From contig NC_088307.1 of the NCBI RefSeq assembly GCF_032854445.1, forward strand, positions 29,914,484 through 29,978,483: DNA of 64,000 bases, read 5' to 3'. Shown in pieces: positions 12-57,838 of the stretch (its first letter is position 1; each line of letters opens with the position of its first letter). The notes below the pieces were generated by a model. That model was given only the letters and a program-made list of their open reading frames with translations. It did not search any database and was not told where the DNA came from. The position numbers were made by a program, and so were the translations under genes. The DNA comes from Liolophura sinensis (lineage: Eukaryota; Mollusca; Polyplacophora; Chitonida; Chitonidae).

Positions 12-3000
12 CATAAATATGTAATTTGTATCTGGCATCTGACCCCCAGTTTTGAAGAGTTCCATCAGGTCGTAAAACTGAAATAGAGAGCAGACAGTTG
101 TTGTTTTGTGGAAAATGGTCACAGTACACAAAGAAACTGATAAGTCCTCCATGACTATAGCAGTTTACAGACACTAGCCAAAGCTACATGTAGTTAATTG
201 CTTCCTTGAATGCAGTCCTCAATGTGGTTTGGTGGGCATTGCCAATGTCAAAAAACAGCTCCTCAATGTGGTTTGGTGGGAGGTGCTAATGTGAGAAAAA
301 AGCTCCTCAATATGGTTTGGTGGGAGATGCCAATGTGAGCTCCTCAAGGTGGTCTGGAGGAAGTTGTCAATGTGAGAAAACAGCTCCTACATGTGGCTTG
401 GTGGGAGGTGCCAATGTGAGATTATTACAATGTGGCTTGGTGGGAGGTGCCAATGTGAGAAACAGCTCCTTACTGTGGCTTGGTGGGAGGTGCCAATGTG
501 AGAAAACAGCTCCTCAATGTGGCTTGTTGGGAGGTGCCAATGTGAGATTATTACAATGTGGCTTGGTGGGAGGTGCCAATGTGAGAAACAGCTCCTTACT
601 GTGGCTTGGTGGGAGGTGCCAATATGAGAAAACAGCTCCTTAACATGGCTTGGTGGGAGCTGCCAATGTGGGAAAACGGCTCCTCAAGGTGGTTTGGTGG
701 GAGGTGCCAATGTGAGAAAACAGCTCCTTAATGTGGCTCTGTGGGAGTTGCCAATGTAAGAAATCAGCTTCTCCATGTGGCTTGGTGGGAGGTGCCAATG
801 TGAGAAAGCAGCTTTAGCTTTTCTTACAAGCAGTGTTTAGGCCAACTCTGTTCACCATCAATTTTGCGACATTTACCATTGATGCTCAGCTTTAGTATAT
901 CAATAGCACCAGCAGAGCTTACCATCATATGGCTGTCTACTTTTGAAACAAGCATACCTTAGAGAGCACACAAAGAGACATAGCTGCTGTAGAATAAACA
1001 AGTTATGGTTGGTTGCATGTAATTGTGAGATCATTGGCTATTGCCTTGTGAACATGGAATATTGCTTTTTGAGTATAACATTGCTTTGTTTGAGCAGGTT
1101 ATTGTTGCATATCATGTTGTGTGAAATAACATGCAGTGCTCCAGATAAATACATTTTTGAGGCAGTACAGTACTCTTCAACATTTTAGCACAGGGGCACT
1201 GGCTTATACGTTAGGTAACCTGGCTAATCAGATAAAATCATTACATCCCAAATAAGCAATGGGCAAACTATGAATGCTTCACATGTAAGGAAAGTCTATT
1301 CAGCATCTTGGACACACAGTGACCAAGGGCACTTCTGTCTTACTTCTCCATGAATGTCCCCACAAAGTGACCAAGGACACTTCTGTCTTACCTGGCCATG
1401 AGTGTCCCCACACAGAGTGACCCAGGACACTTCTGTCTTACCTATCCATGAATGTCTCCACACACAGTGACCAAGGAGACCTCTGCCTTACTGTCCCCAC
1501 AAATAGTGACCAAAGACACTTCTGTCTTACCTGTCCATGAATGTCCCTACACACAGTGACCAAGGACACTTCTGTCTTACCTGTCCATGAAGGTCCACAC
1601 ACCCAGTGACCAAGGGCACTTCTGCATTACCTGTCCATGAATGTCTCCACAAATAGTGACCAAAGACACTTCTGTCTTACCTGGCCATGAGTGTCCCCAC
1701 ACAGAGTGACCCAGGACACTTCTGTCTTACCTATCCATGAATGTCTCCACACACAGTGACCAAGGAGACCTCTGCCTTACTGTCCCCACAAATAGTGACC
1801 AAAGACACTTCTGTCTTACCTGTCCATGAATGTCCCTACACACAGTGACCAAGGACACTTCTGTCTTACCTGTCCATGAAGGTCCACACACCCAGTGACC
1901 AAGGGCACTTCTGCATTACCTGTCCATGAATGTCTCCACAAATAGTGACCAAAGACACTTCTGTCTTACCTGGCCATGAATGTCCCCACAAATAGTGACC
2001 AAGGACACTTCCGCCTTACAAGTCCATAAATGTCCCCACACACAGTGACCAAGGACACTTCTGTCTTACTTCTCCATGAATGTCCCCACACATAGTGACC
2101 AAGGACACTTCTGTCTTACTTCTCCATGAATGTCCCCACAAATAGTGACCAAGGACACTTCTATCTTACCTGTCCATGAATGTCCCCACAAAGTGACCAA
2201 GGAGACAACTATCTTACCTGTCCATGAATGTCCCTACACACAGTGACCAAGGACACTTCTGTCTTACTTCTCCATGAATGACCCCACAAATAGTGACACA
2301 GGAGACTTCTGTCTTACCTATCCATGAATGTCCCCACACACAGTGACCAAGGACACTTCTGTCTTACTTCTCCATGAATGACCCCACAAATAGTGACACA
2401 GGAGACTTCTGTCTTACCTGTCCATGAATGTCCCCACACACAGTGACCGGGGTGGAAACGGGCTGTACATTAGACTCCTCCAGTAGGAGTTCACACACCA
2501 TATCACATAGTTTCTGTGGACAGAGAAGTACATGTAGCTTTTCAAACGCTTGAATGTGTTATTATATTATTAAAGGCTTTAAATATAGGAAGTTTACAGC
2601 TACAGATCAGTGCTTTATGTCTAAGGTCATATTCATAAAGCTGGGTAATCCGTTCATAAAGAAATATTTTCAAATATCAACACATAATATCATTAAATAA
2701 CTGGGTAAATTCAATATGATAGGCTTGGAAATAATGTCAGTCAATGTTACTGTTTAATGCCCATGCACCATTCAGAAATAAGAACTTGGTGAAGACCCAT
2801 AACTGTGGCTAACGCAGAATGGTTAGGACTTCAACAATGGTTTTGTCATGAATTTGGGGCTGGTGTGCCTTTACCAAGTGGAATATACATGTATGAGGAA
2901 TGTTTCATATGCTGGTTAGCTAAGAGGTGCATGTTAGAGCCACAGTTGACACCTGATTTGGACAAAGCAAAAAACAAGTTTTCCCAATTTAGAAATCAAG

Positions 3001-3912
3001 CATTTTTCGCTTAGAACACTCATCTGTAAAACATGGTGTCCTGAGAGTCTCATGCAGCCTGTAGTTTGTCACAAATATCCACAATGTGGACTGAATCCAT
3101 CAAGACATCAACACATAGATTAGTGATTTATCTGGCATTCTTTTCTCTCTTCTCTATCCCATTGTATCAACTATGTCATATTATGGGAAAGAATAGACTG
3201 ATGACAATGGTGCTGTGTCCAGATAAATCCCTAATCTACGTGATGACAATTTGATGGATTCAGTCAAGATTGTAGATAATTTGGTGTACGCACTGGACAA
3301 CACCAAGAAATGAACATGAGTGTCAACCCGACAGACAAATACTTTATTTCTAAAATGGGAAAAACTTTGTTTCTGACCTTGTCCTTATTACAGTAGAGAC
3401 ACAGTTCTATGGCGGAGCCTGCTGGATCGATACGAAGGCCTGTGTGTATTCCACTGGCTGCCGCTGCGGCTATAATACTCTACCAGACAAGAATAAACAG
3501 GGGAGTTAAAATAGTCACTGGGCCTAGTTATCAGCCTGTGTCCAGTTTTCGTTTACAAACAGTCAAGTACGGAAAGGAAAATTCGTCACTAAAAATATTC
3601 TGCTCTTTTCAACACCCGTGTTAAGCCCGCAATATTGAGATGACAGCGACACGGCAATGGTATACAACAGAAATACTCTCAACGAGAATAACAAATCCAA
3701 AATAAACAAATTACGTTCTTGACAGGAGTTACGGAAGACGAAAAAAAGTGCATGCACAGCACACAAAAAGACATAAACATCACAGTTTTCATATCAGTCG
3801 TATACAATGACAAGCACAACGCTAATTCACCCCACTGTGATACCTTCAAATCATTTTCTGGTAAATATTTGCACTGCTTCGCGATCTCTATCCACTGATC
3901 TACGTCCGCCAT
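12..3912 (-). CDS. PPP6C: Serine/threonine protein phosphatase 6 catalytic subunit, 5' part (exons 1-3; gene continues off left edge)
   Basis: Three coding exons are visible on the minus strand: 3912-3844 (23 codons, ATG at 3912-3910), 2513-2418 (32 codons) and 77-12 (22 codons), all phase 0, with AG acceptors and GT donors (GTATCA, GTAAGA, GTGAGC). The 77 residues include [38 protein letters not shown] and DTNYIFM. This is the N-terminal PPP-family fold and is much closer to PP6 than to PP4 or PP2A (family knowledge). Asp51 and His53 in GDIHG are the first metal ligands of the catalytic site. In animals PP6 acts with SAPS and ankyrin-repeat subunits on substrates such as Aurora A. The remaining two thirds, including GDxVDRG and GNHE, must lie left of position 1. 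Intron 2 (78-2417) is filled by two minisatellites, one derived from exon 2 itself. Confidence 0.95.
210..815. repeat. Minisatellite, ~39-44 bp unit, in PPP6C intron 2
   Basis: About 14 copies of a unit containing TGTGGCTTGGTGGGAGGTGC and CAATGTGAG followed by a variable AAAACAGCTCCT linker. Some copies replace the linker with ATTATTACA and are about 39 bp instead of 44. The short ORF over it is only the repeat read through. Confidence 0.85.
1311..2417. repeat. Minisatellite, ~50 bp unit, derived from the PPP6C exon 2 end and its 5' splice site
   Basis: About 22 units abut the real exon 2 donor at 2417. Read on the minus strand, each unit resembles the last ~33 bases of exon 2 (coding [10 protein letters not shown]) followed by GTAAGACAGAAG and a GTGTCCTT linker. 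The genuine exon end at 2418-2450 is effectively the last repeat unit. Variants change CAG|GTAAG to GAA|GTAAG or lose GT. A block of about 290 bp starting at 1391 is repeated at 1681, showing higher-order duplication. The direction of spread (exon into intron) is inferred from the coding part being conserved across the PPP family. Confidence 0.92.
3089..3268. repeat. Long imperfect inverted repeat, MITE-like, in PPP6C intron 1
   Basis: Arms 3089-3135 and 3219-3268 are reverse complements with a few mismatches, sharing ACTGAATCCATCAA, then TAGATTAG and GATTTATCTGG. An 83-bp centre separates them and has no recognisable coding content. The structure fits a foldback or MITE element, but no target-site duplication was clear. 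Confidence 0.6.
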
Positions 3913-56920: not shown

Positions 56921-57838
56921 TCACGTGTGGCCACCCCATGCTTCAATACATGCAAAAACTCTCCGACGTTTAGAAAAAGTCAGTCGTCTGATGAGATGAT
57001 ATGAGATTCGTTGCCATTCATCTTGGAGAGCGAACGCCAGTTCTTGTCGGTTGACTGCAAGATGTGGCCGTTGTCTTACTCGACGACCCATGATATTCCA
57101 AAGTTGTCCTATGGGGGACATATTTGGGAAACGTGTAGGCCACGGCAAGACGTTGACGTCGTTGGCGTGAAGGAAGTTCTGCACAATTCGAGCTGTATGG
57201 AGTCTGACGTTGTCATGCTGGCACAGGACACCACGTGGCTGCTGTTGAAGGAATGGGAAGACAACAGGGCGTAGAATTTCATCCACGTAACGTTGAGCTG
57301 TTAGGTTCCTGTGGATGAAGATCAGTGGTGTCCGTTCCTCTCCAGAAATCCCACCCTACACCATCAAGCTGCCGCCACCAAACGGTACCACCTCCTGGAC
57401 GCATGGTGCAGCCGTTCGTTCTCCTCTTCGGCGGTAAACTCGCTGTCTGTCATCGGCTCGGAACAGACAGAAGCGGCTTTCATCCTTGAAAACAACACTT
57501 TGCCAATCACGTCGCCGCCAACGGCGTACAATGCGAGCTCATTGCAACCTGTGGCGACGATGTTCGGCCGTCAACAACTGCCCTCTGAATGGTCTCCTGG
57601 ACACGGTCTGCCTACTGACCCGATGACCTAGGACATTGATTGCTGATGACGTCACTGTCAGGAAGCGGTCCAGCAGGTGTAAGGTGCGCAGATGCCCGTC
57701 TTCTCTAGGCGTAGTTACCCTAGGCCTGCCTGTTCTTGGCCTGTCCGATATCTGCCCTGTCTGTCTGTAACGTTGCATCAAGTTTGACACAGTTACACGA
57801 GAGCGGTTTCCACCCACAAATATGCTGACCGCCGTCAA
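56921..57838 (-). pseudogene. Dead Tc1-like (Tc1/mariner) transposase
   Basis: Minus strand. The N-terminal part (57838-57539) carries the helix-turn-helix and GRPR region (QISDRPRTGRPRVTTPR), then HRVSRQTVSRR. A middle part in shifted frames has FKDESRF (first catalytic Asp) and PFGGGSLMV. The C-terminal part (57286-56921) has CQHDNVRLHTA (second Asp), VNVLPWPTRFPNMSPIG and ACIEAWGGHT. The expected tryptophan before GGIS is TAG at 57358-57356, frames shift near 57540, and the third acidic residue is lost (SPIGQLW where the family has SPIEHLW), so it is inactive. Terminal inverted repeats were not found. The very N-terminus is replaced by SINE sequence. Confidence 0.9.

What the first reader, a model, noticed from the sequence alone, without database searches (positions are those of the whole stretch)
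1311..2513. A minisatellite made from the catalytic-motif exon end and 5' splice site of PPP6C
The ~50-bp unit is not random intron sequence. On the coding strand it repeats the end of exon 2, the part encoding [10 protein letters not shown] with metal-ligand Asp and His, and the GTAAGA donor, about 22 times directly downstream of the real exon end. The intron therefore contains about 22 decoy donors, several with intact CAG|GTAAG, next to one of the most conserved motifs in the gene. Only the exon side is constrained by protein function, so the array must have grown from exon into intron. This raises the questions of how the true donor is chosen, whether units are ever exonised (50-bp units would shift the frame), and whether the array tunes PP6 output or stays matched to the exon by gene conversion.
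Basis: partly seen in the sequence, partly recalled or inferred. Interest (0 to 1): 0.85.

Follow-up and report, generated by a model that had tools for sequence, protein, structure and literature searches.

The report
Repeated exon end in chiton PPP6C
In a chiton phosphatase gene the end of one exon and its splice site have been copied about 22 times into the next intron; this kind of repeat is already known from amphioxus, but it looks common in this mollusc's genes and gives a natural test of how cells choose between identical splice sites.

Summary
On the minus strand the last 30 nt of PPP6C exon 2 ([10 protein letters not shown]) plus the first 20 nt of intron 2 recur in 22 units after the real copy (array 1312-2448). 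The exon part of the consensus of the 50-bp copies equals the exon exactly. Nine of 22 copied donors share the real donor's 9-mer, CAG|GTAAGA. Use of any of the 22 would give a stop codon 17-20 codons past the normal exon end.

The genome is the published chiton assembly (Liolophura japonica); the gene looks intact. Such arrays are known as "mirages" in amphioxus, and a human CBS VNTR sits at an exon-intron boundary, so this is a new member of a known kind.

New here: of 186 exon loci sampled from three gene families in this genome, 10 carry a tandem array that copies their own exon edge with its splice site (7 donor, 3 acceptor). PPP6C exon 4 has another. Arrays are not enriched at exon edges, so random seeding by a minisatellite-rich genome suffices. 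The real donor is probably chosen by exon definition: published human minigenes with two identical donors used only the upstream one. No RNA was available, so decoy use and any effect on PP6 output are untested.

The parts
3844..3912 (-). PPP6C coding exon 1, [23 protein letters not shown], donor AAG|GTATCA
2418..2513 (-). PPP6C exon 2, ends [10 protein letters not shown], phase 0
2412..2420 (-). authentic donor CAG|GTAAGA of exon 2
1312..2448 (-). donor mirage: 23 complete units (first = real exon end + donor) and a 12-nt remnant; unit = 30 nt exon 2 end + 20 nt intron 2 start
2248..2447 (-). units 1-2 and 3-4, a 100-bp higher-order pair, 1 difference in 100; includes the real exon end
1422..1949 (-). 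units 11-15 (1711-1949) and 17-21 (1422-1660), identical over 239 nt: recent block duplication inside the array
1491..2367 (-). decoy donors of units 2-20; nine of the 22 decoys share the real 9-mer (+1 positions 2217, 2169, 1969, 1869, 1819, 1680, 1580, 1530, 1391)
216..813 (.). second minisatellite in intron 2 (44-bp unit), no exon sequence noticed by eye
12..77 (-). PPP6C exon 3, [22 protein letters not shown], acceptor CAG at 78-80

Best explanation
A mirage-type minisatellite. A tandem duplication that straddled the exon 2 donor of chiton PPP6C (30 nt of exon plus 20 nt of intron) expanded into intron 2 by further tandem duplication. The copy joined to the exon is kept by selection on the protein; the other 22 drift as intron. 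They are tolerated because the spliceosome pairs the exon 2 acceptor with the nearest donor across the exon, which is the real one; slips give a premature stop and are presumably removed by nonsense-mediated decay. Shown: anatomy, exon origin, lack of coding constraint in the copies, stop codons, higher-order duplications that include the exon end, and the same anatomy in other genes. Inferred: which donor is used, NMD, and neutrality.
For: Exon part of the consensus of the eighteen 50-bp copies equals the exon. Copies show no sign of coding constraint: divergence from their consensus is 49/540 in the exon part and 21/360 in the intron part, codon positions 22, 9 and 18 of 180. Higher-order repeats, U1-U2/U3-U4 1/100 and U11-15/U17-21 0/239. 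All 22 decoys give a stop. PPP6C otherwise intact: ten coding exons to TTPYFL-stop. Same anatomy in 10 of 186 exon loci and at PPP6C exon 4. Array coverage falls towards exons (20/292 positions at +160 nt, 9/292 at the match edge, 1/292 at -60), as expected if arrays start anywhere and are purged from coding sequence. Amphioxus Adh3 and globin RT-PCR suggest normal splicing despite mirages. Human minigenes with two identical CAG/guaagu donors and 365-nt introns used the upstream donor exclusively; introns 1 and 2 here are 1,330 and 2,340 nt.
Against: No RNA from this animal was examined. The minigene precedent has two donors, not 23, in transfected cells. In the same paper most unmatched human alternative 5' splice-site events prefer the downstream donor, and with matched strength the upstream preference is 60% overall. 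Second codon positions vary less than first and third in the copies (9 against 22 and 18), which I cannot explain by neutrality alone. Only one haplotype was seen.
Confidence: 0.85

Rival explanations
1. Regulatory rheostat: the decoys bind U1 and a fraction of transcripts splice at them, giving premature-stop mRNA, so repeat number tunes PP6 output, as reported for the human CBS 31-bp VNTR.
For: Nine of 22 decoys have the real 9-mer and all 22 give a stop. A review states that more CBS repeats go with lower CBS activity (passage; the primary paper by Lievers 2001 was seen only as a reference).
Against: Copy composition looks unselected. The same structure occurs in Ral-, Rab-, PPEF- and CCT-like genes with no common theme. 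Amphioxus work reports regular splicing.
Confidence: 0.1
2. Concerted evolution: the exon end and array are kept matched by ongoing gene conversion, and the array may even rewrite the exon.
For: U1-U2 and U3-U4 differ at 1 of 100 positions and U1 and U3 share a variant intron part.
Against: No decline of identity with distance from the exon (Spearman 0.09, p 0.68). One duplication explains the U1-U4 pattern as well.
Confidence: 0.2
3. Selection has weakened the decoys nearest the exon to protect the real donor.
For: In PPP6C the first three decoys are weaker (-4.5, -9.4, -4.5 against -11.0 kcal/mol); the first RAL-like and first CCT-like (L167) decoys are weaker too.
Against: In L022, L089, L159 and L170 the first decoy has the same 9-mer as the real site, and in L082 it is as strong.
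Confidence: 0.08
4. Assembly artefact of repeated reads.
For: The 239-nt block U11-15/U17-21 is identical; no second copy of the locus was found to check.
Against: HiFi-based assembly; most neighbouring units differ by several bases; different arrays follow their own exons elsewhere in the genome.
Confidence: 0.03

Closest known systems
Amphioxus mirage minisatellites (Adh3, globins BflGb6/9, troponin C, PGBD5); PMC3087553 and PMC3902484, passages seen
   Same: Tandem arrays whose unit spans an exon-intron boundary, donor or acceptor, with AG/GT signals in many units and concerted evolution inside the cluster.
   Different: Different phylum and genes; here 23 units at one donor. Length instability between haplotypes, somatic instability and RT-PCR evidence exist for amphioxus and are untested here.
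Human CBS 31-bp VNTR, exon 13/intron 13 (PMC2630376, PMC5188458, passages)
   Same: c.1444_1467+7 repeated 16-21 times, so 24 nt of exon and 7 nt of intron per unit; arithmetic from the name.
   Different: Polymorphic and associated with CBS activity. In the chiton neither polymorphism nor effect was tested. An isolated example so far as I know (recalled).
Internal tandem repeats at exon-intron boundaries of primate-specific paralogs (PMC2812944, passages)
   Same: Minisatellite-scale repeats at boundaries, proposed to make new introns.
   Different: Mostly expansions that change the transcript; here the exon boundary appears unchanged.
Intron gain by tandem duplication of AG/GT segments (PMC4974935, listing only; discussed in PMC3087553)
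   Same: Duplication of a segment carrying splice signals.
   Different: No new intron is created here; an existing donor is multiplied.

Membership tests
Mirage minisatellite (amphioxus definition) | Tandem repeat unit spans an exon-intron boundary | tested here: met
   30 nt exon 2 + 20 nt intron 2 in each full unit
Mirage minisatellite (amphioxus definition) | Splice signal repeated in many units | tested here: met
   22 of 22 copies keep GTAAG or GTAAT; 9 share the real 9-mer
Mirage minisatellite (amphioxus definition) | Units homogenised inside the cluster | tested here: met
   U11-15 = U17-21 over 239 nt; U1-U2/U3-U4 1 of 100
Mirage minisatellite (amphioxus definition) | Does not disturb regular splicing | not testable with these tools
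   No RNA data; only open reading frame across the authentic junctions
Mirage minisatellite (amphioxus definition) | Copy number unstable between alleles or cells | tested here: inconclusive
   A DNA search of the assembly returned only this locus, so no second haplotype
CBS-type functional VNTR | Repeat number correlates with gene activity | not testable with these tools
   Needs population and expression data
PPP6C orthologue | Intact PPP-family catalytic subunit with PP6-type C-terminus | tested here: met
   303-aa product, Metallophos E 8.3e-45; best 3D-structure relatives shown are PP2A-C. That RTTTPYFL marks PP6 rather than PP2A/PP4 is recalled, not searched

The most novel reading that the evidence does not exclude
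In this chiton, and perhaps other minisatellite-rich molluscs, mirages are a pervasive layer of gene structure: about one conserved exon in twenty carries an array of copies of its own splice site, so repeat-number change at thousands of introns continually alters the load of decoy splice sites, makes alleles that differ in unproductive splicing (a rheostat for genes such as PPP6C), and supplies raw material for new introns.
Probability: 0.12. Interest if true: 0.85.

Novelty: new member of a known kind. Interest (0 to 1): 0.5.

Why it matters
The array is a natural experiment on splice-site choice: 23 donors in a row, nine decoys with the same core sequence as the real one, and only the first making a working protein. 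If mirages sit at roughly 5% of conserved exons, as the sample suggests, one RNA-seq data set from this animal would test exon definition against donor strength and proximity over very many identical-site contests. It would also show whether minisatellite turnover feeds unproductive splicing and intron gain outside amphioxus. My literature searches (open-access library only) showed no report of mirages in a chiton or other mollusc.

Tried and rejected
Amphioxus as the source was my first guess, because of mirages. GFP search: no match, but it rang in none of the control genomes either, so it is uninformative. Molluscan haemocyanin (8 matches), an ancestral-looking mollusc mitochondrial gene order read by eye and exact scaffold lengths settled the chiton.

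Similarity gradient away from the exon: none. Weakening of the nearest decoys as a general rule: not supported. Enrichment of arrays at exon edges: not seen; coverage is lower there. Donor bias, 7 against 3: p 0.34.

Of 18 flagged loci (14 of 146; 4 of 40) I accepted 10. L168 is marginal: its units hold the acceptor AG and only about 5 exon nt. L045, L100 and L120 only abut an exon. L035, L037, L067 and L098 are short or unrelated repeats. Classification was by eye (L035 from the scan output alone).

The 64-kb window was not fully annotated: ten chosen ORFs were scanned, and the 430 ORFs pooled were not used further. A search of the phage collection with exon 2 gave nothing, as expected.

Full report
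What is there. The window's first 4 kb hold the 5' part of PPP6C on the minus strand: exon 1 (3912-3844), exon 2 (2513-2418) and exon 3 (77-12), with introns of 1,330 and 2,340 nt. From the last 30 nt of exon 2 a 50-bp unit repeats through the donor into intron 2, to 1312. There are 23 complete units including the real exon end (19 of 50 bp, 2 of 48, 2 of 39) and a 12-nt remnant. The match to the exon is far beyond chance (18 windows at 24 or more of 30, against none in 50 shuffles), and the preceding 30 nt of the exon are not repeated (best 16 of 30).

Which organism and gene. The window lies at C13:29914484-29978483 of an assembly of 609,464,459 bases in 632 contigs. The Liolophura japonica paper gives 609,495,693 bases, 632 scaffolds, longest 96,433,062, N50 37,343,639 and scaffolds 10-13 of 28,395,274, 27,489,247, 25,057,479 and 19,479,325 (passages). 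Contigs C1, C9, C2, C3, C4 and C5 have exactly those lengths. Total length differs by 31,234 bases, which I did not explain. The rest of PPP6C is present outside the window down to TTPYFL-stop, ten coding exons in all as I splice them by eye. The 303-aa product is a Metallophos protein (E 8.3e-45).

Direction of growth. The exon part of the consensus of the eighteen 50-bp copies equals the exon exactly, while single copies differ. Relative to that consensus the exon-derived part has diverged at 49 of 540 positions and the intron-derived part at 21 of 360; codon positions 1, 2 and 3 differ 22, 9 and 18 times of 180. So the copies show no clear coding constraint, and the exon is best taken as the ancestral copy. 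Position 2 is lower than the others, which I leave unexplained. Higher-order structure shows repeated block duplication: U11-15 equals U17-21 over 239 nt, and U1-U2 differs from U3-U4 at 1 of 100 positions. The second pair includes the real exon end, so the coding exon took part in a recent event. There is no overall decline of identity with distance (Spearman 0.09, p 0.68, n 22).

Splice consequences. All 22 copies keep GTAAG or GTAAT. Nine have the real 9-mer CAG|GTAAGA and the same computed U1 pairing energy, -11.0 kcal/mol. The first three decoys are weaker (-4.5, -9.4, -4.5); the first of equal strength is unit 5, 200 nt downstream. Use of a decoy adds a length that is a multiple of three in 7 of 22 cases, but all 22 hypothetical mRNAs have a stop 17-20 codons past the normal exon end. 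Decoy use would therefore be unproductive.

Is it alone? I sampled exon loci in the same genome: all 16 listed matches of PF00149, 130 of 150 listed matches of PF00071 (the list itself covers 150 of 371 candidates) and 40 of 50 of PF00118. A scan for tandem arrays or self-matches crossing a match edge flagged 14 of 146 and 4 of 40. By eye, 10 of 186 loci carry tandem copies of their own exon edge with its splice site (95% interval 2.6-9.7%, which treats loci as independent). Donor side: L022 (PPEF-like, GNHEDHIMNLR), L046 (Ral-like), L082 and L089 (Rab-like), L159, L167 and L170 (CCT-like). Acceptor side: L139 and L147 (Rab-like) and L018 (PP2A-like, degenerate, about 76% identical). By family: 2 of 16, 5 of 130, 3 of 40. 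L159 and L167 lie within 2 kb of each other and probably in one gene, so the loci are not fully independent. Gene labels come from recalled motifs. Each donor array has at least one decoy with the real 9-mer. PPP6C exon 4, outside the sample, has an older 20-bp donor array, 13.6 copies at 71%.

Why so many. Nearly half of the window (31,202 of 64,000 bases) and 7.6% of the first 46 loci (11,587 of 153,006) are tandem arrays by TRF. Around 292 match edges of the first 146 loci, array coverage is 20/292 at +160 nt, 9/292 at the edge and 1/292 at -60. Edges are thus not hot spots. Arrays seem to be seeded anywhere and lost where they break coding sequence; a duplication that straddles an exon edge survives because one copy still joins the exon. 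Match edges are HMM edges, not proven exon ends, so the count may be low.

How the real donor is probably chosen. In human alternative-site data, 5' splice sites of near-equal strength in long introns prefer the upstream donor, and minigenes with two identical CAG/guaagu donors and 365-nt introns used the upstream one exclusively (PMC9225289; abstract and first part of the Results). The same paper finds a downstream preference before matching for strength and in short introns. PPP6C introns 1 and 2 are long, so exon definition predicts the authentic donor. This is inference; no RNA was available.

What is known. Amphioxus mirages are the same kind of object (PMC3087553 passages; PMC3902484 passage): boundary-spanning minisatellites in Adh3, globins, troponin C and PGBD5, at both boundaries, with regular splicing reported for Adh3 and globins. 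I recall that the Adh3 work is by Canestro and colleagues; a look-up under the DOI I tried failed. The human CBS 31-bp VNTR is the nearest single-gene case. Earthworm metallothionein and abalone TSSK1-like introns carry minisatellites, but the passages I saw do not describe copied exon ends. I found no report for chitons in my searches of an open-access library, which does not prove absence.

Verdict. The addition is its apparent frequency in a chiton genome and its use as a ready-made test of splice-site choice.

Noticed in passing
L054, G000:C13:29913877-29914143 (outside the window): PPP6C exon 4 has a second, older donor array: about 20-bp unit containing GCCAA|GTAAGT, 13.6 copies at 71%.
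   Followed up: partly
L054, PPP6C exon 7/8 junction, about G000:C13:29911450 and 29910160: The intron begins ATATCCTTT and ends TCCTTAACTCCCCTGTAC; it looks like a U12-type AT-AC intron (motif recalled), and that junction restores AFCDLVWS.
   Followed up: no
G000:C99 (108,685 bases) and C632 (15,209 bases): C99 has seven COX1 copies about 15.5 kb apart, a concatemer of the mitochondrial genome; C632 holds one copy. Probably an assembly artefact.
   Followed up: no
window 56924-57838, minus strand: DDE_3 and HTH_32 matches (2e-06 and 1.5e-06, both just under the curated cut-offs): remnant of a Tc1/mariner-like transposase.
   Followed up: no
window 1-64000: 31,202 of 64,000 bases lie in TRF arrays, far more than the 0.08% that the genome paper lists as simple and other repeats.
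   Followed up: partly
L139, oriented positions 1-280: Acceptor array whose units read CCAG|GTAACA: an acceptor and a donor-like sequence at the same point, resembling recursive-splicing sites.
   Followed up: no
L022, about 1.0-1.35 kb downstream of the PPEF-like exon: Further blocks with the exon-end donor motif far down the same intron, as if the array had been split or copied.
   Followed up: no
L170 (CCT-like): 109-bp unit made of about 100 nt of exon and 8 nt of intron, 98% identical copies: nearly a tandem exon duplication with no acceptor.
   Followed up: no
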